From assembly GCA_009801085.1 (NCBI GenBank), contig VNWV01000016.1, positions 62,001 through 126,000 on the forward strand: a stretch of 64,000 bases of DNA, in the 5' to 3' direction. Origin of the DNA: Lasiodiplodia sp. COLG20. Lineage: Eukaryota; Ascomycota; Dothideomycetes; Botryosphaeriales; Botryosphaeriaceae. The position numbers were made by a program, and so were the translations under genes. Below the pieces are notes generated by a model. That model did not search any database. It saw only the letters and a program-made list of their open reading frames with translations, and was not told the DNA's origin. This document shows, in pieces, positions 1 through 24,401 of the stretch (position 1 is its first letter; every line of letters begins with the position of its first letter).

Positions 1-3000
1 CAGTGGTCGCGTCAGCTCGAGCAGGCACAGTGTGCCCCCTCCGGGACGCAGCAGTCGGTACAAGTTTCTGCATGAATGCGGCAGCGAGCGCGTCGCGTGG
101 ATACAGTTGGAGGAGACGACGAGGTCGCATGCGCCGAGCAGGTGCGCGGGGACCGTCTCGGCCTCGATGTCAAGCACCGAGAAGTCCATGTGCCGCTCCA
201 CCACCGACGCGCCGTACCGCGCCTGAAACCTGCGCTTGGACGCGCTGACCAGAGCGACGGAGATGTCGGTGAAGACGTAGTAGAAGCTCGGCGGCTCCTC
301 CCCTGAAGACGGCGACGACGACGAGGCCAGCAGCAGTTCCTCCAGCAGGGCGTGCGTCGTGCCACCCGTCCCGGCGCCTACCTCGAGGATGCGGAGAGGC
401 TGCTGCTGCTGCTGCTGCTGTTCGCTTTGCTGTGTTCGCTGTTGTTGTTTGCGGTTCTGCAGCACCCGCTGCAGGAAGGCGCGCAGCATGGCCGTGCCCG
501 TCGCAAAAAGGGGCGACGAGACGTACACGTCCTCGAGCAGTGCGCGCGCTTGGGCACTGTCGAACAGCAGCTGTAGTGCGTCGGCCGCGCCCGTCAGACA
601 CGCCGCGAGACGGGGGCCAGTCACGGCGAGCAGTGAGTGCTCCGGGGTGTACCGTGGGAACGCCGCGAGGATGGCGGCTTGCAGTGATGCTGCTGTCGCG
701 GATGGAGCTGGGACGGCGGTGCGGACCAGTGAGGAGCCGCTGCCGTCGCCAGAGCGGATGGCCAGGCCGGCGTCGCAAACGAAATCGAGCAATACGGAAA
801 CGAGCCTGGCGTGCTTGGGGAGATGGGGGATGGGCGGGAGGACGGCGCCGGCGGGGAGGGCGTGGAGGTCACAACCCAAAGTGCTGAAGGCTTCGGAAAC
901 GTAGGCCAGCGCGAGGGAGTTCTGCGCAGGGTGCACGTCTGAGAAGAATCCTGCCCATCCCGTCTGCCGGGCGAACTGCACGTAGTTCTTTTTGATGTGC
1001 CCGAACTCAGCCAAGGCTTGTAGGATGAAGTGTGGTTCTGAAGAAACACTGTTGGAGTCGATGGAGGTAGAGTAGTGGTTCCGCTGGGCTGACACAATCG
1101 CTTTTGAGTTGCTCATCGTGGTGGTGGTTGTGTCTTCACGGCCAATAATGTCGAGGAGGTCTGAGAAGGTGCACCTTTCGTCTATTTCGAGCAGTTTTGG
1201 CCTCTTCCCGAACATGCTCTCCATATCCGATTTGAGCTGGATGGCGACCAGTGAGTCCATTCCCATATCCCCAAGAGGCATGTCCAAAGAGATTCCGTCG
1301 GGACAATTTAGGTGCTCTGCGAGTAGGTTCGACAACCTGACAGCAATCGGCTCTTGGTCGAATGTCCCAACACTTGCTGGAGTTGGAGGCTGCTTTGTAG
1401 GAGGTCCGGACGAGTCCTCAGCTTCGCTCAAGCAGAGTTGTGGGACCGGAGACACAACAGCGGGCCGAGGATGTAATGTCGAGCAGATTTCCTGGCATAG
1501 ACTGTCAAAACTCTTATCTTGGTCGAAGTATTGCCGCACGGGGATCTCGGCTGAGAAGGTGTCTTTGATCCTCGCTTGAAGTTCGATGGCACTCAGTGAA
1601 TCCACCCCAAGATCACTGAGGCAAGTCGTTTGGTCGGTGCGTTCACATGAGAGTCCAGTTACTTCATGGAGAAGGGCCTTGACGGTGGCGTGCACTTCGA
1701 AAGCCAGGCTGCTTTCCGCACTACATGACCTTTCTTGTGCCCGGGGTTTCGGCGCAGTCGGCAGGGCCTCCGGGTCTACAAAAGACGAGCACACGTCCAC
1801 AGTACCCATTGGCTTCTTTTCGTTTCCATTCATGGCTTCCAGCGCTTTTTTCAAAGAGGTCTCGGGAACCGCAGAGAAGCTTGCACCCAGGATTGCTAGG
1901 AAGAGTGTCTTTTGGCGTGCATTGAAGACAAATATGTCGCTCAGAACAGTCGCGTCGCTTTTCAGATTCAATTTTGAGTAGACTGTCCACGGTCCTTGCG
2001 ACGCCGATTCTTCTTGGTCTCCTGGAATGATTTGGTCAATGCCGTTGCAGATGTATGTTTTGTCGCTTTGACAGGCGCCCAAAACGCCGGCATGGAGTTC
2101 TGCCACAAGAAGGAAGTTGTCAAAGGTTGGTGGATTGAGTGGCGCTGTGCCTGCATAGCCCTGGGAAGCGATCTCGGGCATGGTAACGTCGGCCACAGCC
2201 TCGAGGCCTCTCGAAGTGACGGATTGGATTCCAAAGTAGGCGTCACTGTAGATGGCGACTCGGGCCAAGACCTTCTTGACGAATGCACCGTGTACAGCCG
2301 ATGCCTCGGGATCCTGGCGCAGGCGCAGGCATCGCTCATAGTCCACCAGGCGGAGGATCGGCTGCTGGTGCGGTTCCAAGGTGGGGGCACGACCTGGCTC
2401 CGGCAGTTTGATGATGCCCGAGGCTTGAAGTCTAACATGTTCGTCGTCGTCTAGGGCGTTGCTGCTCACGGCGAATTTCCAGCTACAGTGTGAGTGCTTC
2501 TGGAGCGTCAGGCGAAGCCGGCGTCTCGGGTCAACGCCAAAGGGCGCGTGCAGCTCGACCTGCTCCACCTCCAACGAAAGGTTTGCGGGGCTTCCAGAGA
2601 GGATGGCTATGGCACGCGCGGCTGACTCCAACCACGTCGATGCAGGGCTCAGAGTGTGGCCGAGGACAGTTCTACCGCGGACCAAGGCTGAGTATTCGTC
2701 GCTGTGCTGGTTGATGGTGAATTCTGCCGTCTGGGCATCGCCTCCAGAAAACGACAGCAGTTTCGGGCTTTCCTGCGGCTGCTCCTGGCAGTTCGGTCTG
2801 GTGGGCTCCTCGTGCCTGTGGATGTACTCGAGCCAGTGATGCGTCTTTTGGAACTGGTACGAAGGCAGCTCCAAGGACGCAAAGCAGCTTCTTTGGGAGG
2901 GATGGAATGGCCAGAACTGCACGCGAACTCCCTCGTTCCAGAGGCCGAGAGTCGTGTCTGCCAGCGACTGCGTAGGCTCCGGGCCGTGCAGCGCCTCGGT

Positions 3001-6000
3001 GTAGAAACGATGAGACTTTGGGCTTCCGGACTTGGCGAGGGTGCGGCGAGCCATGCTGACGGCGGCGGATCCAGAGCCAGCCTCCAGCCAGATGCACGAG
3101 CCAAGCTCTTGGTCGACGCGGGCGATGGCGTCAGCAAAATACACGGGGTCCCGGGACTGTTGTGCCACCATATCCGGCGTGACGGTGGCCCAGCTGCTGC
3201 CATCAGTCTTGGAGCAGGCCTCGATTGGAATGGCTGCAGGGAGGAACTCGAGGCCCTGGAGCAGCGCTCGGTAGTCGTCCATGATGGAGTCGACCATCTG
3301 GGAGTGAAAACCGTGCGTAATAGCCAGTCGCTTGACTTGGTGACCACTGGAGCGCGCGGCCTCCTCGAAGGCGGCGACTTGTGCGTCGGGCCCGACGACG
3401 ACGTGGTCGGAGGGGGAATTGTAGCACGCAACTTCGATGCTGGTGTGCGACTGGGCTTGCAGTGCCTGCACCGTGGCTTGGTCGGCAGCCACGCTGAGCA
3501 TGCAGCCGCGCTCGGGGCCCCAGCGGCGTTGGATCAAAGCCGCACGGCCCGAGATCATCTTCACGGCGTCGTCGAGGCTGAGGGCGCCGGCGACTGCGAG
3601 AGCCGTCAGCTGGCCGAGACTGTGGCCAACCAGCTTCTTGACCTGCAGCCCGGCATCGAGCCACGACCGTGCGGATGCATACTGCAGCGCGAACAGCATG
3701 CAGTGGAGGTCGGCCAGGTCTTCTATTGGCTCCGTGCCGAAAATGCGCGGGAAGAGGCTGTGCAGGCCTGCAGCTTGCAGGGCCCGGTCGCAGCGAGCCA
3801 GGTGATGCTGGAGCAGGGCCGAGCTGCGCCATGCTTCTTCGCTGAGCCGGACGCGATGCCCCGTCTGGCCGGCGAAGAGAAGCACCACAGGCTTGGGGCT
3901 GTCCGGAGCCTGCAGCGCAGCGTCGTCCAGGCGGTCGAGGCAGGCTTTTAGTTCCTCAATCGACTGGGCTTGGAAAGTCCTGCGGTGACGGAGCCGGGGG
4001 TTCTGCCGCTGCGCCAGGTGGAAGGAAATGCTCGCAAGCAACGAGGCTCCATCGGCCGCGTGCTGGGCCTCAACGAAGTCGGCAAGAGCGCGGCACTGCC
4101 GGCGCAGGCTGTCTTGCGAATGAGCAGCAATCAAAAACGGGTACTTGAGCACTCCTGCGGGGAGCTTAGCCGTCACGGGCTGCGCGGGCGGAGGCTGGCA
4201 CACGACCATGGCCGCATTGCTGCCAGACGCGCCGTAGTTGTTGACGCAGGCGGCGCGGAACGCCTCGTGCCACGGCTGCAGTTGCTGTGGGATTTCCATG
4301 GCCGCGCTGTCCAGCGCGATGGCCGGGTTCGGCACGGCGAAGCTTGCCTGCGGCGGGATCTGACGGTGCTGCAGCATCAGCAGGACCTTGACGAGCGCCG
4401 CCACCCCGGACGCGGCCTCGCCGTGCCCGATGTTGCCCTTGACCGACGCGAGCCGCAGCGGGGGCAGCGACAAGGCCCGCCGCGGCGCGCCAAAGACGGC
4501 GCGGATGCTCTCGCACTCGACGGGATCGCCTCGCTGCGTGCCCGTGCCGTGCGCCTCGACGTACGAGACGTGCAGCGGGTGCATGCCGGCCGCGCCCAGC
4601 ACGCGGCGGTACAGCGCGCTCTGCGATGCGGCCGAGGGAACCGTGATGGCCGAGCTGCCCTTGTTGGTGTTGACTGCCGACGCGGCCAGCACGCCGAGCA
4701 CGCGGTCACCGTCGGCCACGGCCGCCGCGAGCCGCTTGAGCAGCACGAAGCCGCCGCCCTCGCTGCGGCAGTACCCGTCCGCAGCCGCATCGAAGGGCCG
4801 GCACTGCCCGCCCGAGGCGCTCAGGAATGCGGCGCCGCCCAGGTCCTGGTGCGAACGCGGGCTGGCCATCACGTTCACGCCGCCCGCCAGCGCCATGGCG
4901 CATTCGCCCGACTGCACTGCCTTGCACGCCATGTGCATCGCCACAGCCGACGACGAGCACGCCGTGTCGACCACCAGCGCCGGCCCGGTCCACCCGAAGA
5001 AGTGGCTGATGCGCCCGGCCGCGAAGGCACGCGCCGTGCCCGTGAAGGAGAAGGCCGTGGGCGCCCGCGCGGTGACGTTGTCCGCGTAGTCGGACGATGA
5101 GACGCCGACGAAGCAGCCCACGTCGTCGCTCGCCGCTCCGCACGGACCGAAGTACTCGGCCGATTCCAGGGCCTCGTAGGCAAGCTCGAGCGCGATGCGG
5201 TGCTGCGGATCCATGTACAGTGCTTCGCGGGGCGACTTGCGGAAGAAGCTGTGGTCGAAGGAACCCGCCGTCTCGAGGTAGTTGCCCCGAAACGCTTCAT
5301 CGTTGCTCTTTCTCTCTGAGTACCCCCTCTCGCCGGGCGGCCCTCCTGCCGTCGATTTCCCGGTCCGTATCGTGTCCCAGAACTGGGGCAGGCTTTCCGA
5401 GCCAGGAAACCGGCAGGACGCGCCGACGATGGCGATGGCTTGGTCAGGGTAATCGTAGGGCATTCCGGCCACGGGACGGATCAGCCGCAGCGGCAGAGAA
5501 CGGGGGACGCAGTCGACGGGGCCCAGGAGAAGCGCTCGGCGCTTGTTTTTGGGGAGCTCAGCAGCTTCCTGGGCCATTGCCGCCACCGACTGCGTCATGG
5601 TGACGTGCCAATCGGCCTGTTGGACCAGGATGCACCACAAAGCCATCTCGTGGAGCGGCATTTCGTCCGTCACTACCTTCCCGCTGTCGTTCCGCCGCAG
5701 TGGCACCAGCGGAAGGCGGCCTTTGGGGAACCGGAACATGGGCTCGGCTGCGCAGAGGTCGACCAGCTTTTTGAACGCCATCTCATGGTGCGCGTGGTGG
5801 TAACGGCCCCGCAGGTCAAGCTGCTTGGTCGCAATCCCCTTCTCTTCCAGCCGGCGTATCAGCGCGATGCCCACCGACTTGGGTGCCGTGATGGTTGCGG
5901 TTGACAAGTCAGTGGTGACAGCCACGTAAGCCTGGGTTGCAAGTCAGCCGTCGGCCTGCTTCCATCCATCTCGGAGCACACGTACCTGGGGGTAACTGTC

Positions 6001-6636
6001 GAGCACATGTTCAAAAATTTCCCTTCCCCTGTCGCCCTCGGCCGGCGACCACCGTGCACTCACGCAGAGCGTCGGTTCCGACGCCTGCACCTCATCAAGA
6101 TCGATGAATGCTCCGACACACAAAGCCAGCCGTATAGCGATAGCCCCGTGTCTGGCCACCTCTGCTCGCGTCTGCGAGCATGCCAATGCCGTGGCTGAGA
6201 GCAGCCCGATGCACAGCCCTTGGATGCCCCCGTCGCGAACCCCTTCCAACGCATCCAAATGCGCGTCCCCTTCTCCATCCGTTAGTTGGCCATGCTTCAG
6301 ATAGCTCATATACTCCAGAATGTGAGCCAGAACCGTTAATACCGCCAACACCGTGTTGCCCGTGGTCGCTTCTGCAAATGGCAGAGCAGAGGAGTTGTCG
6401 CTTGTGATCCAGTCCGCCAAACCCTGCAGAAGAGGTGCCGCTGCAACACGTTCGAGAGAGGGTTCCGTTGCGACTAGAAGCATCCAGACCTCGGGAAGTT
6501 CTGTTAATTCTTGCCGGAAGCCTTGGAGGTCTGCATCGTTGACCAAAATTGAGCGGAGTCGAGAGAGATATGTTGCGTCAGGGGTTCCCATTATTTGTGA
6601 CCCGCAAACAATTAGGTATGGCGACTCTGCCGCCAT
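1..6636 (-). CDS. Non-reducing polyketide synthase, SAT-KS-AT-PT-ACP-ACP-CMeT, 3' end outside window
   Basis: Iterative type I PKS that should build a C-methylated aromatic polyketide acid, the aryl half of the cluster product. Exon 1 is 5986-6636 and exon 2 starts at 5931 and stays open to base 1 (at least 2194 aa). Seen in order: SAT with GLCIG (Cys142) and a second SAT half after the 54-bp intron; KS from about residue 375 with DTACSSS (Cys542), VEAHGTGT and GNIGHGEAA; AT with GHSLGQ (Ser988); PT/DH-like fold with GHTLSPAS (His1309) and TFDN (Asp1488); two ACPs with GVDSLSA (Ser1662) and GMDSLVA (Ser1777); methyltransferase with LEVGAGTGGTT (near 2065). Start chosen at the Met directly before the SAT motif; an in-frame upstream Met at 6903 exists. 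The aspartate in PT is followed by NFLL rather than the more usual DNxxQ. Release domain not visible. Confidence 0.95.
400..420 (-). repeat. CAG microsatellite coding poly-Gln inside the PKS
   Basis: Seven perfect CTG units on the plus strand read as seven consecutive Gln codons in the PKS. They sit within a wider Gln-rich stretch (420-470) just before methyltransferase motif I, in what is probably a loop between the N-terminal part of the CMeT domain and its SAM-binding core. Confidence 0.85.
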
Positions 6637-7458: not shown

Positions 7459-8592
7459 TCATGGTCCGACGTGGGTCTTGAGCCCGACTATTTCCAAGAC
7501 CCGGTCGATCCCCCCGACATAATCGATTTCCCCGCTCATTTCCTCTGCCATCTCTCTTGCCTTAGCCGTTAGATCCTCGAGCCTCTGCTCGCAATATTCG
7601 AACGAGCCGGTCGACGCGATGTACTGGATTGCAAACCGTTTGACGTCGTCGTCCTCCGTGCGCTGTTGGAGGATGCTGGACAGCTGGATGTTCGCTGGGT
7701 TCGAACGAATACTGTGGATGATTGGGAAGGAGAACTTTCCCTCGGTCAGGTCTTCACCAAACCCTTTGTTCTTTGTGTATGCGTCACTTTGCAGATTGAG
7801 GTAGTCATCACGAATCTGAAAAATAATTCCCAGCACGTTGACGATAGGAACAAAGTCTCTGAAAAGCAGCAAAAGGACGACGTTAGTATTGCATCTTCCC
7901 TCCCAGCGGATTGGAGTTTCAACTCACTGATCGGTTTTGCTGGCCATCTGCATCAGCTTGACCGCCAGCCTGAAAAGTCCCCCGGTCTTGTTGGACACCA
8001 TCTTGAGGTATTCCTCTTCAGTCGGACAGGTGAATGAGTCCCTCCAGTAGAGGTCCATACCCTGCCCTCGGTGCAGATTCAGTAGTTCTTCAGTGAAGAT
8101 CTCAAATGCACGAGGGTTTCCCAGCTTTGGAAGTTCTTGCTGCGCTAGGAAGAATGCATAGTTGGCAGCGTTGATCGTTTGGGCAACTCCGAAGATGCTG
8201 TGCGCGACGGGGAGTCCACGACGCAGTTTAGAGGAATCCTGGATGTCGTCAATTCTAAAATGTCGTCAGCAAGCGTACTCGCATGTCCTTTAACGCCGGC
8301 ATACAAAAGGGATGCAGTATGCAGAAACTCTACGATGCGTTTGATGACATCCAGCTTTTCTTCCGGTGTCTTCAACCATTCATTGAAGGCTGAGATGATT
8401 TTGCCTCTGACGTCCTTGCCAGAGTTCCGAAGAAGATAGCTCAATGGAGCACGAATAACCTATACGAATGTTAGAAAAAGTACAGAACGAGCGGCGAATT
8501 TCAGTGAATTGAAGTACCTCTTCGTCATTGGTCACAAACTTAGAATCCATCACTGGGAAGGACTGCTTTTCCATGGTCTTTACACACGGCAT
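7459..8592 (-). CDS. Geranylgeranyl diphosphate synthase
   Basis: Condenses IPP with FPP (or shorter allylic diphosphates) to give GGPP, the terpenoid donor for the cluster. Exons 8518-8592, 8305-8459, 7928-8254 and 7459-7858 give 318 aa, the usual length for fungal GGPPS. The first aspartate-rich motif is LLIDDIQD (Asp79-Asp83), split by an intron exactly at the Leu codon; the second is IRDDYLN (203-207). Ala and Ser precede the first motif where short-chain FPP synthases carry bulky aromatics, which fits a C20 product. HSIFG and [14 protein letters not shown] are also typical. The first Met (8592) or the seventh codon (8574) could start translation. A cluster-dedicated copy is expected, since primary metabolism needs its own elsewhere. 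Confidence 0.93.
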
Positions 8593-8904
8593 TTGGTGGA
8601 GGAGGAAGTAGTAGAAAGTTTAGTTGCTGTCTTGAAAGGAGGTTTTTATGATAGAGAATATACCCAGGCTGCGCTGATGTTGAAATGGGATAGAGTAATC
8701 CTCTGCGGGGCAGGCTACCAAGAGTGCAATAATATACGTCAAGGTGAGGCTGAACCCAATAGAGAACGTCTGTAGTGGGAAGATATGCAGAAGGTCTTCG
8801 CACTTCGACAGTTTAGAGTTGCCGCAAACTAAGCACCGTGTCAGAACTCTGGGGAACATATTCGCCGAATAAGCATCCTCTTGCTCAATTCCATATTTCG
8901 GTAT

Positions 8905-9034
8905 GTAAAGCATTCGGCGCTTAGGTGATCTGCTAAGGCGATCCGTTGTGTAAGCGATTCGACGTTCAGTGGATCCACTGCGTAAGCGATTCGGCGTTCA
9001 AGCGATCCTTTGAATAAGCGATTCGGCCGCCGAG
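8905..9034. repeat. 32-bp imperfect tandem repeat in divergent promoter
   Basis: Units at 8950-8981 and 8982-9013 are 32 bp each, followed by a truncated unit at 9014-9034 and preceded by a diverged longer unit at 8905-8949. The shared core is AAGCGATTCGGCGTTC followed by a GGATCC or GCGATCC segment. Confidence 0.8.
9023..9033. promoter_or_regulatory. Putative cluster regulator site TCGGCNNCCGA
   Basis: The 11-mer TCGGCCGCCGA fits the TCG-N5-CGA architecture known for AflR. An equivalent 11-mer lies at 12354-12364 in the other terpenoid divergent promoter. Binding is inferred. Confidence 0.5.
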
Positions 9035-9329
9035 GGGGCATATCACAACACAACGGAAAGACCCGCGAAATTGGATATTGAATATGACAAGATCCTACGC
9101 CGAACGGATTTACATCCCGAAGCATTCACCTATCAAATACGATTCTATATACTTTGATAAGAACGAAAGGATAAGGTGACTTGCCGCAATAATTCTTTAT
9201 CTTTTATCTTCTTCTCTAAACTTCGAGGCTGCCAGCGCGCGTTAAAGACTATTTTGTTCTCGAATCTGCTCTTTTGATCCTCCTTTCACGCCTAGACACC
9301 CGGATATATTGATCACGGACCTCTCGAAT

Positions 9330-10129
9330 ATGAATGCCGCCGACGTAGCCCAAGCACCTCCCGAGTACCAAGATGTCGCCTGGATTGCAGACGCATGCAA
9401 ATTGTTGATGGGGGTCGGTTGGATGACGAACTACATCGGCATGATCTACAAGTCGTTCCAGGAGAAGACCTACTGCATGTCATTGATGCCACTCTGCTGT
9501 AACTTTGCGTGGGAGTTGGTATACGCAGTCCTCTACCCATTCGGCAGCGGGGTGGAACAATACGTTCTTTTACCGGGATTGGTTCTTAATGGCGTCGTCA
9601 TGTACACTGCCGTCAGATTCGGTCGAAACGAATGGGCACACGCGCCGTTGGTTCAGAGAAACCTCCATTTGATTTTCACCGTTTGCGTCGTCGGCTGGAT
9701 GTCTACGCATTTGGCTCTGGCCGCACAATTCGGACCTACTCTGGCTCAGGCCTGGAGTGCATACGGCTGCCATCTCCTCTTGAGCGTTGGAGCCATATGT
9801 CAACTGATCGGCCGAGGCAATTCGCGCGGAGCGTCCTATTTTCTATGGTATGTTCACAAATATGGGTCATATGATAATCCGTGATGGCTGACCACAAATT
9901 TGATTTACCTGTCAGGTTGTCTCGGTTCCTCGGGTCCCTTGTGCTCCTTCCCCAAGACGTATTACGCTACAAATATTGGCGTCAAGAACATGAATGGATG
10001 AGCTCCCCTGTGTACATTTGGTGTGTCGTGTTTTCATGCGCACTGGATGGCGTTTACGGCATCTGTCTCTGGTATGTTCGCCGTAACGAACAGGGGCTGA
10101 ACAAACGCGAAGGATTGAAGATGGGGTGA
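9330..10129 (+). CDS. Membrane-bound meroterpenoid cyclase (Pyr4/PaxB-type)
   Basis: Protonates a terminal epoxide on the prenyl chain and drives polyene cyclisation of the meroterpenoid precursor in a membrane. Exons 9330-9847 and 9916-10129 give 243 aa, against about 242 for Pyr4. Roughly seven hydrophobic segments are visible. The two acidic residues known to be essential in Pyr4 (Glu63, Asp218) have clear counterparts, Glu62 in NFAWELVY and Asp217 in CALDGVYG. The Trp codon is split by the intron. The short N-terminal extension from an upstream Met at 9309 is less likely, because family members begin close to the QDVAW segment. Head-to-head with the GGPP synthase. Confidence 0.93.
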
Positions 10130-12691: not shown

Positions 12692-13819
12692 ATGGCAGCC
12701 GCAGGTCAAAGACAACTATTTAAACATCTTCTTGTTCTTTCACGATTCACCAAATATAACCCTCTATTTGCCACTTTTGCAGGTGGTACGTATTTTTATT
12801 CACCTCCTTCCAGCACAGAACATAGCATTGAGCTGACATAAAATGTATGAAATACAGTCTGGTCCGCTTTGCTCGCTGGTGCAGCCCAGATCGCTGACCA
12901 GCCTTCGGCTGGGTCCCTCGCCTTTGTGTTTCGACAGACGGCATTATGCTTCCTTGCCGCATACTTTTTCTGTGGCGCTGGGATGGTTTGGGACGACTGG
13001 GTTGATCGGGACATTGACGCCAATGTTGCTCGGACTAAGAACCGTCCTCTAGTAACTGGAATGGTCACGACGACGGAGGCTATGATATGGATGGTGCTGC
13101 AGGTCGCCGCTTCTTGGTTTGTCCTACATATCATGCTTAATGGGAAGGACGTGTAAGTATTTGGAAGCAGTCTTCCTTCTCATTTCCTTTGCCATTTTAT
13201 CATCGGCCTTAAGGCAAGTCGAGTTACTAACGGTACAACATACAGATGGAAGCATCTAGTCCCGGTGATGGTGGCTTCAATTATTTACCCTTACGGCAAG
13301 CGACCGATAGCCCGGAGGTTTTATTTATACCCGCAGGTCATTCTTGGTTTTACCATCGCCTGGCCCGCCATTCCAGGGTGGGCGGCCATTAATGGCCAAC
13401 ACCAGTCCTTTACCGAAACAACCCGCCAATGCCTTCCACTCTGCACGATGGTCTTCTTCTGGACCCTGTATCTCAATACCGCATACAGCTACCAGGACGT
13501 GGAGGATGACCGCAAGATGAACGTGAATTCGTCTTACAACCTTGCAGGACAAAACATCCACTATATGTTACTAGCGCTCGTCGCGCCAGTTCTGGTGTGT
13601 ATCCCTCTGTTTCTGCACCACTTCCACTCTTTGTGGCTGTGGATAAGCTGGATGGGGCTTTGGACCGTCTTCTTTACCGACCAGCTCGTTCGATTCGACC
13701 CGAAGCGGCCTGCAACAGGAGGGACACTGCACAAGAGTAACTTTATGCTTGGGGTCTGGACAATCCTTGTGTGCGCAGTTGAGGTTTTCTTGAAGGTTCG
13801 AGTGACACTTCTGGTGTAG
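12692..13819 (+). CDS. UbiA-family aromatic prenyltransferase
   Basis: Integral membrane enzyme expected to join GGPP to the PKS-derived aromatic acid. Exons 12692-12785, 12858-13152 and 13246-13819 give 320 aa, normal for the family. The first aspartate-rich motif is WDDWVDRDID and the second is YQDVEDDRK; YPYGKR is the conserved loop between them. Multiple hydrophobic helices are evident. The start is the Met after the in-frame upstream Met at 12656, chosen because homologues start shortly before the FTKYNPLFATFAG segment. Its family rules out the soluble indole-diterpene type of prenyltransferase and points to a polyketide acceptor. Confidence 0.93.
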
Positions 13820-14161: not shown

Positions 14162-15544
14162 TTAGGAGAATCTGGTTTGCAAGAGTTTTCTAATATCCTT
14201 CATCAATCCAGCCAAGTCTTTATACGTAAACCGCCCGTGCTTTTGTGCATCTATCTCCTCTTGAATCTGTACGGCATGCAATAGAGATGAATTGATCAAC
14301 CCAGCGGCGACGCAGTCATTACGCGCCTTGTGAAGTCGATCTATCAGGTGCGTGCTTGCCTGTGCGACTAGTACAGCGTCCATACCCATCCCGGTCAGGG
14401 CCTGGAAGGATCCTAGTTTCAAATCAGGAAAGAGACAACCCAATCCCATTAGCGAACCAGAAAACAGGAGCTCCCTTAGGTCTAAGCAAAAGCTCGTGTA
14501 CAGGCGAACGAGTGCAGTATAGCAGGACAACAGGAGTAGTACAGTCGAAGTGTCGACTTTCGCAGTAGGGCTGGTAGTCCGATGTGGGGGTGGAAGCTCA
14601 GTGCTAGTAGGAAAAGGCGTCACATTGGTCGACCACGCGCTGCCGTGCTCAGTTAAGGCGTCGAATAGAGACGAGCTATCGACACTACTCCCCGACGATT
14701 GGCTACCCACGGATCCAGAAAAGTCGTTGATGGGGACATGAACTGCGCCCCCATCGATTCCACAAGTCGGATTGTATCGGGCCTCGGACACTGTCGAAGT
14801 GTCGGCTAGCCTTGTGGCAATGGACACGAGCTTCTGCGTATTCTCAAACATGGCCGTGATGGGGTAGTCGCGGAGCCGTGAAACCAAAACGTTTCCCCCT
14901 TGCGGAGAGATCCCTCTTGCCCTCTCCACGGTCTCCAGCTGGGTGTGCAGGACAACGCTCAGGTCCGCCAATTCTCTAACGTAGTCTTCCAGCCCGGGGT
15001 CACATGGATATCCTTCAGGCTGGATTCCGGTGCGTTCGCTGAAGCCGTCGAAGAAAGTCCAAGGGAGCGCTCCCGGATCTGCTGGCGCAGTGTTTACAGG
15101 ACCAAGCGTCACAGAGTTGTCGAGAAACTCGAGGAAGCCGGAGTTGCAAACGTCGTTTATATCAAAGCCCATGGCTGAAACCATCTCTGGTGATTGTGAA
15201 TCCAAAGTCGATGCTGCAGCACACTGCGGTAGAGTGTTTTGTGGGTCCGGAGGTTGGCCGTCATCTTTTTGTATCGAAATCTTGCGTGGTTCGAGCTTTT
15301 TGCGACTGTTGGTTGTCGCTTCAGAGGGACGTCGACGTGGCCGGCCGATGCGGCACGAAGGGCTGTACACGCACTCAGCTGAGAGGCGCAAGCATCGGTC
15401 GCACACTTGAATCTCCGGATTGACGGTACGCAAACACCGTAGTTTTTGGGCATGGCATCTATCGCATGCCAACCGGCGGCGGGGGGCGGACGCGGCTTGC
15501 TGCGGCGACGGAATGCTTGGAGAGGACGAGCCAGAAGACAACAT
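14162..15544 (-). CDS. Zn2Cys6 transcription factor, AflR-like, probable cluster regulator
   Basis: 460 aa in a single open frame. The zinc cluster lies near residues 26-57: C-x2-C-x6-C, then a long linker, then C-x2-C-x6-C (CDRCHAQKLRC ... CDRCLRLSAEC), followed by a basic stretch ending GRPRRR. The linker length and the HAQKLRC sequence resemble AflR-type regulators of polyketide clusters. The C-terminal half contains a helical region (LLLLSCYTALVRLY) typical of AflR-domain proteins. Located in the middle of the biosynthetic genes, so a pathway-specific activator role is likely. AflR recognises TCG-N5-CGA elements, and such elements occur in the two divergent promoters nearby. Confidence 0.88.
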   Translation of the reverse strand: MLSSGSSSPSIPSPQQAASAPRRRLACDRCHAQKLRCLRTVNPEIQVCDRCLRLSAECVYSPSCRIGRPRRRPSEATTNSRKKLEPRKISIQKDDGQPPDPQNTLPQCAAASTLDSQSPEMVSAMGFDINDVCNSGFLEFLDNSVTLGPVNTAPADPGALPWTFFDGFSERTGIQPEGYPCDPGLEDYVRELADLSVVLHTQLETVERARGISPQGGNVLVSRLRDYPITAMFENTQKLVSIATRLADTSTVSEARYNPTCGIDGGAVHVPINDFSGSVGSQSSGSSVDSSSLFDALTEHGSAWSTNVTPFPTSTELPPPHRTTSPTAKVDTSTVLLLLSCYTALVRLYTSFCLDLRELLFSGSLMGLGCLFPDLKLGSFQALTGMGMDAVLVAQASTHLIDRLHKARNDCVAAGLINSSLLHAVQIQEEIDAQKHGRFTYKDLAGLMKDIRKLLQTRFS

Positions 15545-17358
15545 TATTACTTCCTATAGCCCATCACTAGCACGGTTAAATCTGGGAAATATTATATAGT
15601 GTATGAACGCTTGACTGGAGCGTAGGCAGACCTGTTCCCAGAATAGCTGAGGCTGAATGATTCGTCATCGCTCGCGTTGATCGGTGACGGTAACATGGGC
15701 ATCCTGCTGCCCGCGATAGGACTCCACAAACGCCACCTTCACGATGCCGGTTGCTTCGTTTCCATAAGATACCCTACAAACCCCTATTCTGAAATTACAT
15801 GGATCTCGGCTCACGGGTCCCGGCGTGCCATTCCTGCTCAGGGTCGGTCCTAAAAGGCCATATCAGGTGTACTGAACGCCCAATGTTAGGTAGAAAAGTG
15901 GATCACATCATTTGAAACTGACTAGAGAAGTACAACCTTCTCCGCCGATTTTGAGACTGTCACGGACCAAGGCCGTTGTTAACGAGCCGGCAGCCGCAGT
16001 CTGGCTGCGACGGGCGGGAATCCTGCAGGATCGTCTCACGCGATGGGAGAGGTCTGGTTCTCAAGGACCGGTGTGCCTGACCGTATTGTGTACACGGCAG
16101 TTGCAGGGAAAGATATTATTAGCGCGTCGTTCGCTGCACTGTTACGTTTCCCCTGGCGACCCGGGACCCACATCCATTGCCCCGAAACGGACGAGGGAAT
16201 CGAAAACTTACAACATCGTCCAGCTATACTTCTAAATGCAAACTTGAGCCACATGTCATGCTACGGACCAGCCACATAGCCGAGACAGGGTAGCAAATGC
16301 TCGGGATGACGTTTTTGACTTGCGCTGGTAGAAATCAGTTTTCTCGGATTCATCGTTAAAATCGAGCTTAACCGTAAGTCCGAGCGGTGTTGGGGTTGGC
16401 AGAATTTGACCCCGCGCCTCTCCACGCGTACCACGGCCCGATTTTCCGCTTGACCTTCTCTCTGCCCCCAAAGTTCAGCAGGCAATCCTTCTTTCGCGAG
16501 AGGCAAAGTCATCGAATGTCCTGTTCAAGGGCGCCAAAGACAACAAGAGGAACGGCCCGGTCCTGAATGCGAATAAGAGTGTTGGACCCCACAATAAGGG
16601 GAATGCCATCGGTACAGCGGGTCTGAGCGCGCGTAGGCGGTGGGAGTACATGAGTCTTGTCTTCCTTTGGGGGCCAACATCGGAGCGAACGTGCCCGTTC
16701 CACCAACCAACAACATCAACCCCTGAGAACACGGCATCATAGCAGGGCACGGTAGCTTGAGATAGATGAATACTAAAGGAAGGTATAAATGTACAGGTCT
16801 GTTTGAACCGGTAGGTCGAGACGAGATATCGAAGGAATGGATAATTCCGATGTACCGTCGGCCAACTGGGAAAGTCGCCGAACTTCTACGCACGGAGAAA
16901 ATGCACGGGGAAAACGCACGGGGGAAACCTATGGGGAAGGCGCACGACGGTCATCGCAACGAAAAACTAGCCGATATCCCAAATGAATCACACAGGTGTA
17001 AGAGGCGTCCGGAGGGCCAGAATAATCGGCCGCTGATGTAACTGCCGTTGTCGCGGCATCGGTGAGTTGGATGACACGGCTCAAACCGCAAAATGGATGG
17101 CTAACACTCGAGACGCAATTTGAGGATCCGAGAAAGTCGCATCCTCCCGGCCCACCCATCCAAGCACTGTGTATTCGGTAGTCTAGTAACGGAGAATCAC
17201 CAAGAGCTTACCCTGGCATAGAAGTGGTAATCGGGTGACTTGTTTTGTAGGAGTACCAGTATTAAAGCCGACAAGAATCTCCTTCAAGCCATTGGTCAAT
17301 CTATTCCCCTTTGACAGTCCCCAAAGTTCGACCATCGATTTCACTTCCAGGTTTTACA
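15545..17358. other. 1.8-kb spacer between regulator and SDR
   Basis: Must contain the promoters of the regulator and of the SDR. Several open frames of 60-122 codons occur on both strands (for example 15912-16235 plus, 16525-16893 minus, 16766-17041 plus), but none shows a domain, signal peptide or intron-linked continuation. A one-mismatch version of the cluster site (TCGGCCGCTGA) is at 17026-17036. Confidence 0.5.
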
Positions 17359-18213
17359 ATGCCACTCCCTGCGGCTGAGCCCACTACCCTGGCTGGCAAG
17401 ACCTGTCTCGTCACTGGAGGTGCTGGTGGACTGGGCAAGGCCATCGTCACGGCGTTCCTCAAAGCCGACGCCAATGTTATCATGTGCGACATTAACCAGG
17501 AACGACTGAAGGAGACCTCGACTGAGTTGGCGGGTGCGGGTTCCCTCACGGCGATCCGAGCAGACATCACCAACTCGGCCGAAGTAGAAGACTTGTTCAC
17601 CGAAATCGCGGGCAAATTTCCCACCCTGGACGTTCTGGTCAACAATGCCGCCATCATGGACCGCTTTGATCCGGTCGCCGAGCTCGACCTCGAGCTCTGG
17701 GATAAGGTTTTGTCGGTGAATCTAACGGCGCCGTTCATGATGACCAAGCTGGCATTGCGCGCCATGCTGCAACAGCCGGACTCCAATGGGTGCATCATTA
17801 ATATTGCCTCTGGATCAGCAAAGGCTGGGTGGCTTGCGGGTAAGTATAACAGTTAAACGTACCGAAATGCAGGTGTTGACCTTAGCGCCACAGGTACCGC
17901 GTACACGGCAAGCAAGCATGGTTTGATCGGATTGACGAAGAGCACCTCTTCATTCTACGGTGCCAAGGGTATCCGCTGTAACGCATTGTTGTGCGGCATG
18001 ATGGACACAAACATTACCGACTCTTTCCAGGCAGGCTGCAATGCTGAGGGACGACAGAAGGTCATGAACATTCTATCCGGAAGCAGGCCGCAACAGTGCC
18101 GTGTTGAAGATGTGGCAGGTTTCTGCTTGTATCTGGCCCATGGAGCGGGATCGAATGCCATCAATGGAGCGTGTATTGCTATTGACCACGGTTGGACAAG
18201 CATAGTAGGTTAG
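17359..18213 (+). CDS. Short-chain dehydrogenase/reductase (classical SDR)
   Basis: NAD(P)-dependent oxidoreductase, probably interconverting a hydroxyl and a ketone on the terpenoid scaffold. Exons 17359-17839 and 17894-18213 give 266 aa. Motifs: TGGAGGLG cofactor loop (residues 20-27), NNAA (about 97-100), the catalytic Ser in IASGSAKAG, and YTASK with Tyr and Lys, the Gly codon just before being split by the intron. The C-terminal INGACIAIDHGW is the usual SDR end. Its position between the regulator and P450 genes suggests cluster membership, but the substrate is unknown. Confidence 0.9.
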
Positions 18214-19904
18214 AGGGTTAGAATCGATCTATGTCGTAGTATCGATTCCGCAAGATATTGAAATTTATTTTATCTTTGTAGTCTGGGTATCGACCAACAT
18301 ACTGCGTCGTGAAGCAGGAGCCCGGCGCGGGATTTGGAAGTTTTGGAATATGGTCCTGACATGAGACCACTCGTAATGGCTGTGCCTGAAAAGAAATTTC
18401 TGGTTGCTTAGGCTGGGCTGCAAGAGAGGATTTTGAGTTACCCATGCTAAGAAGCTGGTCTTTAAAGAGATACCGCAAAAGAAAAAAATGAAAGGGCTGT
18501 CGTCTGGAGTGTTAATGACATTCATACTCTTCTCCATGGTTTTATTACGCGCCGTTAGGGCAGAAGCGAGCGTGGGGGCTATGCATTTACACCAGTCACG
18601 TCAAATGGGGAAGCGCTTAAAGAAACCCACGGTTTTGGCGCAAGGCTAAGCATCTTCCCCACAACTACGACACGTGTTGTCCAATAAGATCAACATCCTC
18701 AGGTGAAGTTACAAGCTACTAGGAGACGTAAAGGGAAATTGTTCTACCTAAACGCCGTAACACTTTTAGTGTAGCCCCACTTCGTATCCACGTAGACTAC
18801 GCCGCACCAAAAAAAGAAGAAAACAAAGTACTCAGTAGACTGCACCAGTTTACGCCTGTGAGCTTTGTTACCAGAGATAATGTTTCGAAAATTCTTGAAC
18901 AGACTGGAAAGTGGGTACTTTTCCGCATGCCTTGCTAAGACAGTTTAAAGTCTGCCCCGCTGGAATCGTGTGTGAGACTCCGCGCCAGTAGGTAGATATT
19001 AAAGTAAATATAACTACTGTTTCTAGACTTCTAGAACTCCTTCACATAACAGACTAAATATGTGGCCAATATTATGACCTCATGTCCGCTGTCGCGGTCC
19101 GGCTCCTCTGAACTATTAGACCAATTTATCCCTCTTAATCCAACAGGTCTCCAGCTGCCCATACTGGAGACGTCTATCTTGTAAGCCGTGACTTCATACC
19201 TACTCTATAAACCATACGAGCATGTGCATGAGGGATCAAACTCAATTCATGATTGTTTGGCTAGTACGGTTTGCTTCACCTCCGTGACGAGATGTTTTAC
19301 CCTATGTGGGAGTCTGCGGTATAGAAGATTCAATTTACTGCTTCGGTTATAAGGCTGGCTTGCTTATTACCGGTGACTTTGAGAGATTCGTTGTGGACTA
19401 AACGTTTGATGAAGCTGCTTAGATCTTCTGTTGGGGAATACTTTGTGCGCCTGGATGGGACTTTCGAGCTGTCTATAGTGAGCTGCGATGGGTAAATTTG
19501 AGTTTTGCATGGTTGGAAGCTAAAATGCAACGCTGACATGGGAGCCATGCATTTGTATCTGGCAGAGCTGGGGAACAATATAAGAGAAACATCCTTTTAC
19601 AATGTCGTATCCTCGCAAACTGCGTCACACAATAAAGTCAAAGTGAAGAATAAAGTTTTATCAGTCAGCATTAGTAGGCCATCTTGAAACAGATGCAAGC
19701 CACGGCATTGTCCAACAATGGGAAAATATGTATATACTAAGGCTCTTTCCGTGCATTTCTCCGCCCCCTGCAAGCACCTGCCGGTCCGCCGAAACCACAT
19801 GCGGGGCTTCATCCATGCATGTGAACGTAAATATAATGCCCAGCTTCCACTCACCTCCGTTGCTCTTCCATAACTCTGAATTTTCTTAACTAAAGAAAGC
19901 AAAC
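18214..19904. other. 1.7-kb spacer upstream of P450
   Basis: No gene recognised. Open frames are short and lack motifs. Composition is more AT-rich than the flanking genes, with many TA-rich stretches around 18980-19080, so it may include decayed repeat DNA. The last few hundred bases should contain the promoter of the P450 at 19905. Confidence 0.45.
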
Positions 19905-21458
19905 ATGTGGGCAACAATCGCACTAACCATCATCTCCATCACCGCCCTCCGACTACTATACGAGGCGTGGCGTGACCGACGCCTACCACCAGGACCCAAG
20001 AGACTACCATTCATCGGCAACCTCCACCAGGCGCCACACGACGTTCCCTGGCGCACGTACCACAAATGGTTCCAGCAGTACGGCCCCCTCATCAGCGCGC
20101 AGTTCGGCGGCACGACGGTGATCATGATCGGCGACAATAACGTGGCGCACGAGCTGCTGGACAAGCGGGGCAGCGCGTACGCCGACCGTCCGCGCATGGT
20201 CATGGCGGGCGAGAACCTGACCAAGGGCATGCACCAGCTGCTGCGGCCCTACGACGAACGCTACCTGCTGCACCGGCGCATGGAAGCGCCCATGCTGGGC
20301 CCGCGCGCGGCGGCGACGTACGAGCCGCTGCAGGACATGGAGTCGAAGATGCTGCTGCACGAGTTCCTGTCCCGCGATGATTTCAGGAAGCGCTTCGAAA
20401 GGTACAGTGCTAGTCTGGTGTACAGCCTGGCGTATGGGTTCCGCATCGAGACGGGCGACGAGCAGCCTCTCAAGGACGCGCACCGCGTGCAAGAGAACTT
20501 TGGCTACGCCGGCCGCGTCGGCACGTGGGTTGCCGACGCGCTGCCGTTCCTGAATGTGTTGCCTCAAGGCCCGCTGGCGCCGTGGAAGCGCGTGGCTGAC
20601 GACTTCTTCCGCATTGAGAGCGCGCTGCACACCCGCAATGTCACCGCCGGCTTGTCGTCAAAGGCTTGGAACTGGACAAAAGAGCTGCATGCTAGCAGTG
20701 AGGCGGCCCAGATGGACAGTCTCGAGTTCGCGTACGACGTGGGCATCTTGGCTGACGCCGGGTTGGACACTACGACTGCCGCCATGGAGGTGTTCGTGCT
20801 GGCCTGCCTCGCGTATCCGAGGTTTCTCCAGCACGCGCAGCGGGAGTTGGATGAGGTGGTCGGTGGCGAGAGGCTTCCTTGCTTGGCTGATCGAGACAAG
20901 CTGCCCTACATCCGTGCGTGCGTGGAGGAGACGTTGCGGTGGAGGCATATTGCACCGGGCGGTATCCCGCACGCCACGCGGTGCGAGGATGAGTACATGG
21001 GCTATCGAATCCCCAAGGGGACGACCGTACTGCCTGCCTACTGGACCATGCACCTGGACGAGAAGGCGTGGGATGCGCCCTTGAGTTTTGCGCCGGAACG
21101 CTGGTTGGGCCAACCGGATGGCAGGCACTTTGGCTTCGGTCGGCGTGTGTGCACTGGTCGCCACATTGCACGGAACTCGATGTTTTTGCTCATCGCCCGC
21201 CTTCTGTGGGGCTTTGACATCGGGCACGCTGTTAATCCTGCTACCGGAAAGAAGGTTCACGTTGACGACTTGGCCCTGACTTCTGGTTTCGTCTCAAAGC
21301 CTGAGCCATTCCCTGCTGTGTTCCAGCCTCGAAGCAAACACCATAAGGAAGTCATTGAGAGGGAGTGGCAGATACAGGAGAAGGATCTCGATAAATTGTT
21401 GAATGGGATTCGCGATCAGCAGATTCAGACTGGACTACATATCCGGGTGAAGGATTAA
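19905..21458 (+). CDS. Cytochrome P450, intronless
   Basis: Heme-thiolate monooxygenase anchored by an N-terminal helix (residues 2-18) followed by the proline hinge LPPGPKRLPFIGN. 517 aa in one exon. The I-helix has AGLDTTT (285-291), the K-helix ExxR is EETLR, the PERF region is PERW, and the heme-binding loop is FGFGRRVCTGRHIA with Cys416. Overall it resembles the OrdA/O-methylsterigmatocystin oxidoreductase group, often found in fungal secondary metabolism. There is an unusually long tail (about 95 residues) after the heme Cys with charged helices. It is GC-rich and intronless, unlike the P450 next to it. A tailoring oxidation of the meroterpenoid is inferred from position. Confidence 0.9.
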   Translation: MWATIALTIISITALRLLYEAWRDRRLPPGPKRLPFIGNLHQAPHDVPWRTYHKWFQQYGPLISAQFGGTTVIMIGDNNVAHELLDKRGSAYADRPRMVMAGENLTKGMHQLLRPYDERYLLHRRMEAPMLGPRAAATYEPLQDMESKMLLHEFLSRDDFRKRFERYSASLVYSLAYGFRIETGDEQPLKDAHRVQENFGYAGRVGTWVADALPFLNVLPQGPLAPWKRVADDFFRIESALHTRNVTAGLSSKAWNWTKELHASSEAAQMDSLEFAYDVGILADAGLDTTTAAMEVFVLACLAYPRFLQHAQRELDEVVGGERLPCLADRDKLPYIRACVEETLRWRHIAPGGIPHATRCEDEYMGYRIPKGTTVLPAYWTMHLDEKAWDAPLSFAPERWLGQPDGRHFGFGRRVCTGRHIARNSMFLLIARLLWGFDIGHAVNPATGKKVHVDDLALTSGFVSKPEPFPAVFQPRSKHHKEVIEREWQIQEKDLDKLLNGIRDQQIQTGLHIRVKD

Positions 21459-21730
21459 AGTTGAAGAAGAATCAGCTCCCAATAGTTTTCGATTAGTAAA
21501 AAAACGAAAGCCAACATACTTCCCAGTAGCGAATTTATTACAGCAGTAATAAAAACTCTTACACAGAGTATGGTCACGACACAGAAACTTCTAAGGGTAG
21601 TTTCATTCCTTCTTATGTTTATCATAAATAGTGTTTTATATTCCTGCATAGCCCCAAATTTCTCAAGAATAATGAGATTCATGTTTACAAGATCAGTTGA
21701 CGGGTAGTATATTCTGATCCGCACATGGAT

Positions 21731-23727
21731 TTAAGCCTTCCGCGACTTGAACATCAAGGGTAGCGGCGGAAGAGTCAAAGTAAAGGTGTCCAGCTGGTTC
21801 TTCTCAAAACTCTCTCCGGTCTCACCAGGGGCATAGCTGATGTCAAAGTTGAGAGCTACGCGGGACAGAAACATGCGAAGCTCCAGCTTGGCAAGCTGCT
21901 TTCCTGCGCAGTTCATCGCGCCTGTTCACACGTCAGGAGGGAGTTGCTGAACAAGTCATGGTGCACTAACCTCGAGAAAAGGTGATGAAGGGGGCAGTCT
22001 CCGGGTTCAACTTGCCATCGCTCCACCTTTCAGGAACAAAGTCCAGAGGGTTTTCATAGTTCCGAGGGTCACGATGCAGCGTCTGTGCAGGGATAGAGAC
22101 AATGGTATCACCAGGAATATACACTTCGTCAATCTGGAGTCCTTCCGGAGGCGTTAAGCGGCCCAGGCCACTGGGCACAGGAGGACGGAGACGAAGGGAC
22201 TCGTTAATGATGTCGTCGAGATAGCTAATCTGCTTGACTTTTTCGTAAGACCAGTCGGAATCACCGTTCGGGAAGTATTCATCAAGAAGAGCTTGGAGTT
22301 TCTTGAGCACGCGTGGATTACGAGCAAAAAAGTTCAGCGTGTTGGAAAGAGCATTGGCGGTGGTATCGCTAGTAATCGTCAGCAAACGCCAAAGTATATT
22401 GATGGTCATCACGCACCTGCCAGCAATAATGAGAAGACGGGCATCTTCGTGTAGTGCGCCTTCACCGGGCGGTGCGGACTTGTCGTTCTCAAACCTCGCC
22501 TTGATCAGGTAAGAAAGGATGTCTTGGGGATCAGCATCCTTGTCAACTTCCTACACGGACCAGTCAGCATTTCCAAATCAGTAATTCCAAACCATAGCTG
22601 CCCCACCTTCTGCTTATCTTTTACTTGCCCAGCGCAGTAATTCATAAAGGCAGTGAGTTTGCTTGCTGCACCAGGAACTGCTGCAAGCATGGTCAACAAC
22701 CAGGGAACTGGTGTGAGCAAACCAATGATTGCCATGGAGTCGTGAATGCCCTTGATCGTAGGGTGCGTCTTGCCCGACTTCAGAGTTTCCAAGTCCTTCC
22801 CGAGACCAACTTCGCCCATGACATCGAAAGAGAAGAACATTGACCAGTCAGTCGCATCGACTGGACTGTTCTCCAGCTTCCGGATTTGGCTGATCAGCGT
22901 ATCTGTCTTGGCCTCCACTCTGGGCTCATATTTCGCCAGTGCTGGTTCAATCAGTCAAATTAATCTCAATTACATGGCTGGCTTGATCATACCTTTCACA
23001 CCTAAGCTGCGGTCCCATGCTCGTCTTCGTTGCCGATGGACTTCCGAGACTCGTACAGAGTTAAGGGAGCATTTGGTGGCGTCATTTGTGACCTGGGCGT
23101 ACCATGGTGATTTCTTGCACCCCGCCGGTGGCCCTTGCCATTGTTAGTCTCAAGTTTCTTTTCCCTTTGCATATTCTACGCACCATGTACCAGTTGTACT
23201 GCGGCCGGTCGATTGACCGAGATTTCACGGGGCCCTATGAAGTGGTAAGCATGAATCATGCTTCAGAGAAAATCGGAATAACGCCTACCGATGCGGACAA
23301 AATCCCCGTATTTCTTGTGCAGCTTTTCGACCTCGTCGCTCAGCTGAGTGTTCTTGCAGGCCAGATACATTGCGTAAAAACGTGAGGCTGCGGCCAGCCT
23401 TGGACCAGGGAATTTCCGCAGCCTGTGAAAGATCAAACGGTAGGCGAGAATGCTCGTGGCAAGACCAAGCTTAAAGGCGAACGCCACCAACGCCGTTCTA
23501 AAAGCCGCTTCGGAGGCCTGAAAATGGCCGATGGAAGTGTAACATGCCCAGAGAGTGAATGTAGAAACCAGATGAATTCCAACAAACCGCCAGCCATAGC
23601 AGTCAACCTCAAACCGGACGATGCTCCAGTGGAACAGAACGCCCAGTGTAAACGCAGTCGAGAAAGAGTGCAAAAGCCCCGCCTGCAAACCTTTCTCAAG
23701 GCCGGCAGCTTGAATTTGCTCCATCAT
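21731..23727 (-). CDS. Cytochrome P450 with membrane-rich N-terminus
   Basis: Tailoring-type P450, 562 aa, 7 exons: 23289-23727, 23184-23234, 23093-free boundary resolved as 22993-23133, 22607-22941, 22417-22550, 21971-22368 and 21731-21921. Exon 2 is only 51 bp. The N-terminus has several hydrophobic segments before the FPGPRLAA hinge. Splicing restores VRIGPREISVNRP, then KKSPWYAQV and RRRAWDRSLGVK, the typical order for this P450 group. The I-helix is AGSDTT (365-370), ExxR is ESLR, and the heme loop FSRGAMNCAGKQLA carries Cys504, split by the last intron. The start was taken at 23727 because family members begin close to the hydrophobic segment; an in-frame Met at 23898 also exists. Cluster membership is inferred from position. 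Confidence 0.87.
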
Positions 23728-24401
23728 GTGTGCAAGGCGTGATACGTTGGGCACGCAGGATGTGCCAAGAAAAAGAAAAAGATGAAGGCACCAGAGCGCA
23801 AGCCTATGATACAGCTCGCTTTTTGTGTTATCGCTGGCATGGGGGCGGAAACACCACGCGCCCCACCTTTTGGAAAGACCTGCACCACGCGGCCCCATTC
23901 CCGAGTTCCGCGGGACGGAAGTCTGTGCTCGGAGATGTTACCGAGAACGGGCGGCTTGATTCAAGCCATGCATGTTCGTTACCGACAGTCTGGAACCGTG
24001 GTCGAACTTGGGTTCTGCAACTCAAACCGCTACCCGGGGTGCTGCATTAGCCGGCCGGCCTGTCACTCACGCCATGCAATTTACAGCTTCGTCCCCGTTT
24101 GGGAGAGCTACAGGCCCAAAGACAGACGCTTTCGGTTCTGTGCCGTGTCACATCCCTGCTCAACCACGCCGCACTGCGCCGCACCAGGATCCAGACTGCT
24201 GGCGCCCGCGCATGAAACACTGCCGACGACGACTTTTTCTCCGTGGTAAGGAGCCGGTCCCCTGGCTGCGGAATTACGTCCCATGCCGGCTGCACTTGGG
24301 TCAAGGTCTGGCCGGGGTCTAAGAATCTTTGGAGCAGCTTCCGCTATGCATTGGGCCCAAAACTCTACACCTCCCTGTTGTACGCTAGATGGAGACAATA
24401 G
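23728..24401. promoter_or_regulatory. Divergent spacer between P450 and membrane protein
   Basis: 674 bp between head-to-head genes; presumed promoter region for both. Open frames here are overlapping shadows with no recognisable domain. Confidence 0.5.

What the first reader, a model, noticed from the sequence alone, without database searches (positions are those of the whole stretch)
1..24401. Meroterpenoid cluster pairing a methylating NR-PKS with its own GGPP synthase
PKS, GGPPS, UbiA prenyltransferase, FAD epoxidase, Pyr4-type cyclase, SDR, two P450s and an AflR-like regulator lie together. Most characterised fungal aryl-polyketide meroterpenoid routes with this gene set use farnesyl diphosphate; a resident GGPP synthase predicts a C20-prenylated aromatic scaffold, a less explored chemical class. 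Gene families are seen in the sequence, the order of steps follows the Pyr/Adr/And pathways, and the product is inference.
Basis: partly seen in the sequence, partly recalled or inferred. Interest (0 to 1): 0.75.

Follow-up and report, generated by a model that had tools for sequence, protein, structure and literature searches.

The report
Fungal diterpenoid-pyrone gene cluster
A fungus, probably a Lasiodiplodia species, carries an intact gene cluster that most likely makes a subglutinol- or higginsianin-like molecule, a C20 terpene joined to a pyrone ring; the class is known, but the finishing enzymes here differ from the five clusters that have been worked out.

Summary
The gene list is right: methylating NR-PKS, GGPP synthase, Pyr4-type cyclase, FAD epoxidase, UbiA prenyltransferase, Zn2Cys6 regulator, SDR and two P450s have intact gene models. 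The reading "C20-prenylated aromatic scaffold" is half right: C20 is supported, aromatic is not. The PKS stops just after its methyltransferase, without a release domain. Its product-template domain has Arg where aldol-cyclising domains have the catalytic His; 63 of 121 aligned rows share this and none of the 63 has a tail over 200 aa. It lies inside the clade of SubA and other diterpenoid-pyrone synthases. The five core genes match the subA-E/dpxxA-E set, shown to make geranylgeranylated pyrones and a common intermediate (PMC7156458). The SDR is 60-66% identical to SDRs that appear to share contigs with such PKSs in seven species. So this is a new member of a known kind, in Lasiodiplodia or a near relative. 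Differences: tandem ACPs, one SDR, no BBE-type gene on the contig, no methyltransferase or second SDR seen by eye, and P450s of unproven membership.

The parts
1..6636 (-). NR-PKS (dpxxA/subA type), 2258 aa, SAT-KS-AT-PT-ACP-ACP-CMeT, no TE/R; exon 1 6636-5986, intron 54 bp, exon 2 5931 to window -194 (C8:61806, outside the window)
   Evidence: model; domains; relatives, tree; active sites, tail
7459..8574 (-). GGPP synthase (dpxxD type by family), 312 aa, 4 exons, first Asp-rich motif DDIQD
9330..10129 (+). Pyr4-type transmembrane terpene cyclase (dpxxB type by family), 243 aa, 2 exons
   Evidence: 65% identical over 165 aa to the cyclase part of P0130; only such locus found in the genome
10550..12120 (-). 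FAD-dependent epoxidase (dpxxE type by family), 465 aa, 4 exons
   Evidence: family only; not compared with DpxxE sequences
12692..13819 (+). UbiA prenyltransferase (dpxxC type by family), 320 aa, 3 exons
   Evidence: family only
14162..15544 (-). Zn2Cys6 transcription factor, 460 aa, no intron; presumed pathway regulator
17359..18213 (+). short-chain dehydrogenase, 266 aa, 2 exons; relative of SDRs that appear to sit on diterpenoid-pyrone contigs
19905..21458 (+). cytochrome P450 'a', 517 aa, no intron; cluster membership doubtful
21731..23727 (-). cytochrome P450 'b', 562 aa, 7 exons, long hydrophobic N-terminus; cluster membership untested
8938..9027 (.). 2.8 copies of a 32-bp repeat between the divergent GGPPS and cyclase genes; a regulator site is a guess only
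   Evidence: a 14-base core of it with up to 3 mismatches is no commoner in the window than in shuffles (6 against 5.4 expected)

Best explanation
A diterpenoid-pyrone cluster of the subglutinol/higginsianin kind. Proposed route: the NR-PKS builds a triketide with one C-methylation and, having no thioesterase and no aldol-cyclising PT dyad, releases it as 5-methyl-triacetic acid lactone (inferred from relatives). The GGPP synthase supplies the C20 diphosphate and the UbiA enzyme joins it to the pyrone. The FAD enzyme epoxidises the chain and the Pyr4-type cyclase closes it, most likely to a decalin (metarhizin C-type intermediate). The SDR oxidises the ring hydroxyl to a ketone, and one or both P450s may oxidise further. 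Shown: the genes, their open frames, domain make-up and PKS ancestry. Inferred: every chemical step and the product.
For: PKS ends after CMeT. PT His is Arg in the window and in 62 of the 120 listed hits (63 of 121 aligned rows); none of the 63 has more than 200 aa behind the conserved CMeT Trp (largest 180), against 31 of the 58 His rows. The His/Asp dyad is needed for aldol cyclisation (PMC13300579, PMC5386248, passages). PKS tree: window inside a 24-row clade (SH-aLRT 100) with SubA, the F. graminearum PKS, Macrophomina, Colletotrichum and Apiospora rows. Core set PKS, GGPPS, PT, FMO, cyclase equals subA-E/dpxxA-E (PMC7156458, introduction and results part 1). SDR 60-66% identical to SDRs whose longest-contig length equals that of a TE-less PKS hit in seven species; Paramyrothecium P0130 joins such an SDR to a cyclase 65% identical to the window's. 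GGPPS matches a solved GGPPS (2q80) at E 1.4e-100, FPP synthases at 1e-19 or weaker.
Against: No product, expression or enzyme data. FMO, UbiA and GGPPS were not compared with Dpxx proteins. The best PDB match of the GGPPS is labelled 'Terpene synthase'. The window PKS has two ACPs, SubA and the F. graminearum PKS one. SDR2, BBE and MT genes of characterised clusters were not found. Arg at the PT site also occurs in the esdpA branch outside this clade, so it does not by itself mark the decalin type; and P0056, a named Penicillium protein with SAT and His, has no long tail either. Equal contig lengths are strong but indirect evidence of shared contigs.
Confidence: 0.85

Rival explanations
1. 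Same polyketide and C20 chain, but terminal epoxidation and tricyclic cyclisation as in setosusin/brevione rather than the decalin branch.
For: Both branches start from 5-methyl-TAL and a geranylgeranyl chain (PMC8902786, passages); tandem ACPs also occur in the esdpA group; FMO and cyclase regiochemistry cannot be read from sequence here.
Against: PKS groups with SubA and the F. graminearum PKS, esdpA lies outside; cyclase and SDR resemble those on a contig that appears to hold a PKS of the same clade.
Confidence: 0.12
2. One reading: a C20-prenylated aromatic (orsellinate-type) meroterpenoid.
For: NR-PKS with PT and CMeT domains is the architecture of aromatic synthases; the PT Asp is kept. 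Some aromatic makers, SorB, ClaF and MPAS, also lack the PT dyad (PMC13300579, passages).
Against: No TE, PT catalytic His is Arg, and the PKS is not among the TE-bearing rows.
Confidence: 0.04
3. A decaying or silent cluster without product.
For: No expression data; tailoring genes of known clusters missing.
Against: All nine genes are open with usable splice sites; SAT, KS, AT, both ACP and CMeT motifs intact; the PKS is about 94% identical to the head of a six-member protein cluster, so it looks maintained.
Confidence: 0.05

Closest known systems
sub cluster of Metarhizium robertsii / dpma of M. anisopliae (subglutinols)
   Same: Core PKS, GGPPS, UbiA, FMO, cyclase; PKS 49% identical over 71% of the query (P0042), SAT-KS-AT-ACP-CMeT by Pfam without TE
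   Different: One ACP there, two here; BBE-type dpmaF there (PMC7156458), no BBE-type match on this contig; SDR and P450s here
dpfg cluster (C16) of Fusarium graminearum (FDDPs)
   Same: Core set; PKS 53% identical over 75% (P0010, taken as DpfgA by species and similarity)
   Different: There two SDRs, two methyltransferases and a P450 (PMC7156458); here one SDR and no methyltransferase seen
dpmp cluster of Macrophomina phaseolina
   Same: Core set; PKS rows P0003/P0007 53% and 59% identical; SDR P0127 64%
   Different: There SDR1, SDR2, MT and P450 (PMC7156458); which of P0003/P0007 is DpmpA was not established
esdp-type clusters (esdpA of Penicillium shearii); setosusin/brevione branch
   Same: esdpA is TE-less with Arg-type PT and tandem ACP
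   Different: PKS only 39% identical to esdpA (P0075) and outside its clade; setosusin and brevione proteins were not compared
DMOA routes (andrastin, anditomin, austinol)
   Same: NR-PKS with CMeT, UbiA, FMO, Pyr4-type cyclase, SDR (established knowledge)
   Different: They use FPP and an aromatic polyketide released by a thioesterase, and need no GGPPS (established knowledge)

Membership tests
Decalin diterpenoid pyrone (subA-E/dpxxA-E) clusters | Five core gene families NR-PKS, GGPPS, prenyltransferase, FAD epoxidase, terpene cyclase together | tested here: met
   definition from PMC7156458, results part 1
Decalin diterpenoid pyrone (subA-E/dpxxA-E) clusters | PKS in the clade of SubA/DpxxA | tested here: met
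   Inside the clade holding SubA and the F. graminearum PKS, SH-aLRT 100 (quick method, 37 of 121 rows)
Decalin diterpenoid pyrone (subA-E/dpxxA-E) clusters | Cyclase orthologous to DpxxB | tested here: inconclusive
   65% over 165 aa to an uncharacterised cyclase joined to an SDR, contig length equal to that of a PKS of the clade; no DpxxB sequence compared
Decalin diterpenoid pyrone (subA-E/dpxxA-E) clusters | GGPPS, UbiA and FMO orthologous to DpxxD, C, E | not tested
   The three protein searches went to PKS, SDR and P450s
Decalin diterpenoid pyrone (subA-E/dpxxA-E) clusters | Product is a decalin linked to a pyrone | not testable with these tools
   Needs expression and structure determination
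DMOA/aromatic meroterpenoid clusters | NR-PKS with C-terminal thioesterase | tested here: not met
   PKS ends after CMeT
DMOA/aromatic meroterpenoid clusters | PT domain with His/Asp dyad | tested here: not met
   Arg at residue 1304, Asp kept
DpxxG-type SDR | Orthology to DpxxG rather than DpxxH | tested here: inconclusive
   None of the 120 listed SDR hits is named G or H; an Asp at the end of beta-2 in the sequence suggests NAD and oxidation (established knowledge)

The most novel reading that the evidence does not exclude
A Botryosphaeriaceae branch of diterpenoid-pyrone synthesis with a tandem-ACP synthase that, with one SDR and no reducing partner, goes to the C-8 ketone (known so far as engineered compound 8 of PMC7156458) and is then oxidised by one or two P450s to keto diterpenoid pyrones that have not been described.
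Probability: 0.35. Interest if true: 0.42.

Novelty: new member of a known kind. Interest (0 to 1): 0.3.

Why it matters
Diterpenoid pyrones were reported to act on cancer cells, HIV, amyloid aggregation and insects (PMC7156458, introduction), and those of Fusarium graminearum are discussed as virulence factors (PMC10381663, abstract). A cluster in Lasiodiplodia, whose L. theobromae metabolite review of 2020 holds no occurrence of 'diterpen' or 'pyrone', would add a compound class to look for there and a new set of tailoring enzymes. It also corrects a likely annotation error: such PKSs are easily called aromatic.

Tried and rejected
Aromatic C20 meroterpenoid: disfavoured on PT and release-domain evidence. 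Cluster-specific promoter motif to decide P450 membership: a script looking for gapped 4+4 words common to four core promoters found none, too weak to conclude. PT domain against PDB: the window's PT gave no match and a His-type PT gave three weak dehydratase matches, so the mapping of the Arg column to PksA His1345 rests on the 58 aligned His rows and on published motifs, not on a structural alignment. In-genome farnesyl synthase as a chain-length control: no first motif was found by the script in L015; dropped. P450 search: the 120 listed of 624 hits are 45-95% identical to P450a; the best BLAST match of P450b to any of the 120 was 31% over 214 aa, so P450b stays unplaced. None of the longest-contig lengths equals one of the Arg-type PKS rows (compared by eye), which speaks against P450a being a conserved cluster gene. 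27 of 58 His-type rows have no long tail; 25 of those 27 also lack the SAT entry, so are probably truncated predictions, but P0056 and P0072 have SAT. Extra genes: a search for BBE-type FAD_binding_4 scored 76 of 76 candidates and found none of 65 matches on contig C8. The same for SDR scored only 19 of 355 candidates and for Methyltransf_25 only 50 of 116, missing even the PKS's own domain, so neither proves absence; the absence of a second SDR or a methyltransferase rests on reading frames by eye. On checking, odds were lowered a little: the C-8 ketone itself is already known as compound 8.

Full report
What is there. The window is positions 62001-126000 of contig C8 in a 43.5-Mb, 88-contig genome. 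From right to left the cluster holds P450b, P450a, SDR, Zn2Cys6 regulator, UbiA prenyltransferase, FAD epoxidase, Pyr4-type cyclase, GGPP synthase and NR-PKS. I built gene models by hand with GT-AG introns and checked each family with Pfam. All nine are open.

Host. I take the host as Lasiodiplodia or a close relative; the species was not determined.

The PKS. The frame that runs off the window ends 194 bases further left, at C8:61806, right after the methyltransferase. The protein is 2258 aa: SAT, KS, AT, PT, two ACPs, CMeT, no thioesterase or reductase. A search with exon 2 listed 120 of 7833 hits. I aligned all 120 with the full window protein. At the PT position where 58 rows have His, 63 rows including the window have Arg. 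Behind the conserved CMeT Trp none of the 63 Arg rows has more than 200 aa (largest 180), while 31 of the 58 His rows do and 27 do not. His1345/Asp1543 of PksA form the aldol-cyclising dyad (passages of PMC5386248 and PMC13300579); the Asp is kept in 61 of the 63 Arg rows. The CMeT residues that PMC13300579 names as conserved, Asn, His, Glu and Trp, are present in the window. In a quick maximum-likelihood tree of 37 rows that I chose from the 121, the window lies with SubA, the F. graminearum PKS, Macrophomina, Colletotrichum, Apiospora, Ophiocordyceps and others in a 24-row clade with support 100, all 24 with Arg; esdpA and the TE-bearing rows are outside. Inside the clade the window's place next to P0002 has support 80 only. 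P0042 is named subA by its source; P0010 is taken as DpfgA by species and similarity.

What the core does. Tsukada et al. 2020 (PMC7156458; I read the introduction, part 1 of 3 of the results and one methods section) define the decalin diterpenoid pyrones by five conserved genes dpxxABCDE: NR-PKS, GGPPS, prenyltransferase, FAD epoxidase and terpene cyclase. Expressing A, C and D in A. oryzae gave the C20-prenylated alpha-pyrone, and adding B and E the common intermediate. A review (PMC8902786, passages) calls these 5-methyl-TAL-derived, describes the intermediate as bicyclic, and says that setosusin and brevione branch off by another epoxidation. The window has all five families. The polyketide is therefore expected to be a pyrone, not an aromatic acid.

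Tailoring. In PMC7156458 an SDR pair (G, H) inverts C-8 through a ketone (compound 8), and BBE, FMO, MT and P450 genes vary. P0130 also carries a Pyr4-type cyclase part, 65% identical to the window's over 165 aa. So the SDR very likely belongs with this pathway. Its Asp after beta-2 suggests NAD and hence oxidation to the ketone (inference). No BBE-type flavoprotein matches on contig C8 (all 76 candidates scored). For a second SDR and a methyltransferase I have only a survey by eye of the first 130 residues of non-overlapping frames of 110 aa or more from window -38997 to 63119, which can miss genes with short exons: none between PKS and P450b; SDR-like frames lie at -30356 and at 45110, 30 kb left and 21 kb right of the cluster. 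The family searches for these two scored only part of their candidates and decide nothing.

P450s. P450a relatives are spread over many Pezizomycotina at 45-95% identity, with no contig length shared with a listed Arg-type PKS, so its membership is doubtful. P450b could not be placed.

GGPP or FPP. The enzyme matches solved GGPPS 2q80 (human, by recall) over residues 18-295 at E 1.4e-100, and FPP synthases only at 1e-19 or weaker. Its first motif reads ASLLIDDIQD, with small residues at -4 and -5 where FPP synthases carry aromatic ones (recalled). The top PDB hit, however, is labelled 'Terpene synthase'. In F. graminearum, deleting the cluster GGPPS lowers but does not abolish product, ascribed to other GGPPS copies (PMC10381663, passages); this genome too has about five polyprenyl synthase loci.

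Known or new. Searches for Lasiodiplodia or Botryosphaeria together with meroterpenoid, diterpenoid-pyrone and compound names listed no title that reports such a cluster or compound from Lasiodiplodia; these are capped listings, most papers were not opened, and subscription journals are mostly not in the library. The L. iranensis genome paper counts one hybrid PKS + terpene cluster without describing it in the passages seen. Tandem ACPs occur in 28 of the 63 Arg rows but not in SubA, P0010 or P0007, so they are not unique to this host.

Verdict. It is a new member of a known kind with a tailoring set that differs from the five characterised clusters.

Noticed in passing
G000:C43, about 1045-33708 (six KS hits 1489-32652), loci L004-L007, L109, L110: A 10,887-aa open frame without introns with six KS and three methyltransferase matches, a giant multimodular PKS, on a 78.6-kb contig; beside it, by eye, an FSH1-like hydrolase frame. 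One of its KS domains is at most 46% identical to bacterial ones among the 80 kept of 148 loci, so it is no obvious contaminant of a held bacterial species. Most fungal PKSs are single-module (recalled), so this deserves its own look.
   Followed up: partly
window 8938-9027: 2.8 copies of a 32-bp repeat between the divergent GGPPS and cyclase genes; its core is not enriched elsewhere in the window.
   Followed up: partly
window 16888-16946: 4.5 copies of a 13-bp repeat between regulator and SDR.
   Followed up: no
window 26189-36000: Chitinase-like and LysM-like frames next to the cluster (read from translations, not searched).
   Followed up: no
window -9152 to -2688 (partly L009): A very long ankyrin-repeat-like frame (2155 aa) left of the PKS, by eye.
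   Followed up: no
P0118 (Aspergillus venezuelensis): An Arg-type PKS whose precomputed Pfam list includes UbiA (PF01040): a possible PKS-prenyltransferase fusion or a gene-model error.
   Followed up: no
P0003 and P0007 (Macrophomina phaseolina): Two Arg-type TE-less PKSs named from one species, one with two ACPs and one with one, suggesting a second pyrone cluster there.
   Followed up: no
P0035 (Paramyrothecium foliicola): A 2511-aa member whose last 400 residues do not look like a thioesterase by eye; probably a fused gene model.
   Followed up: no
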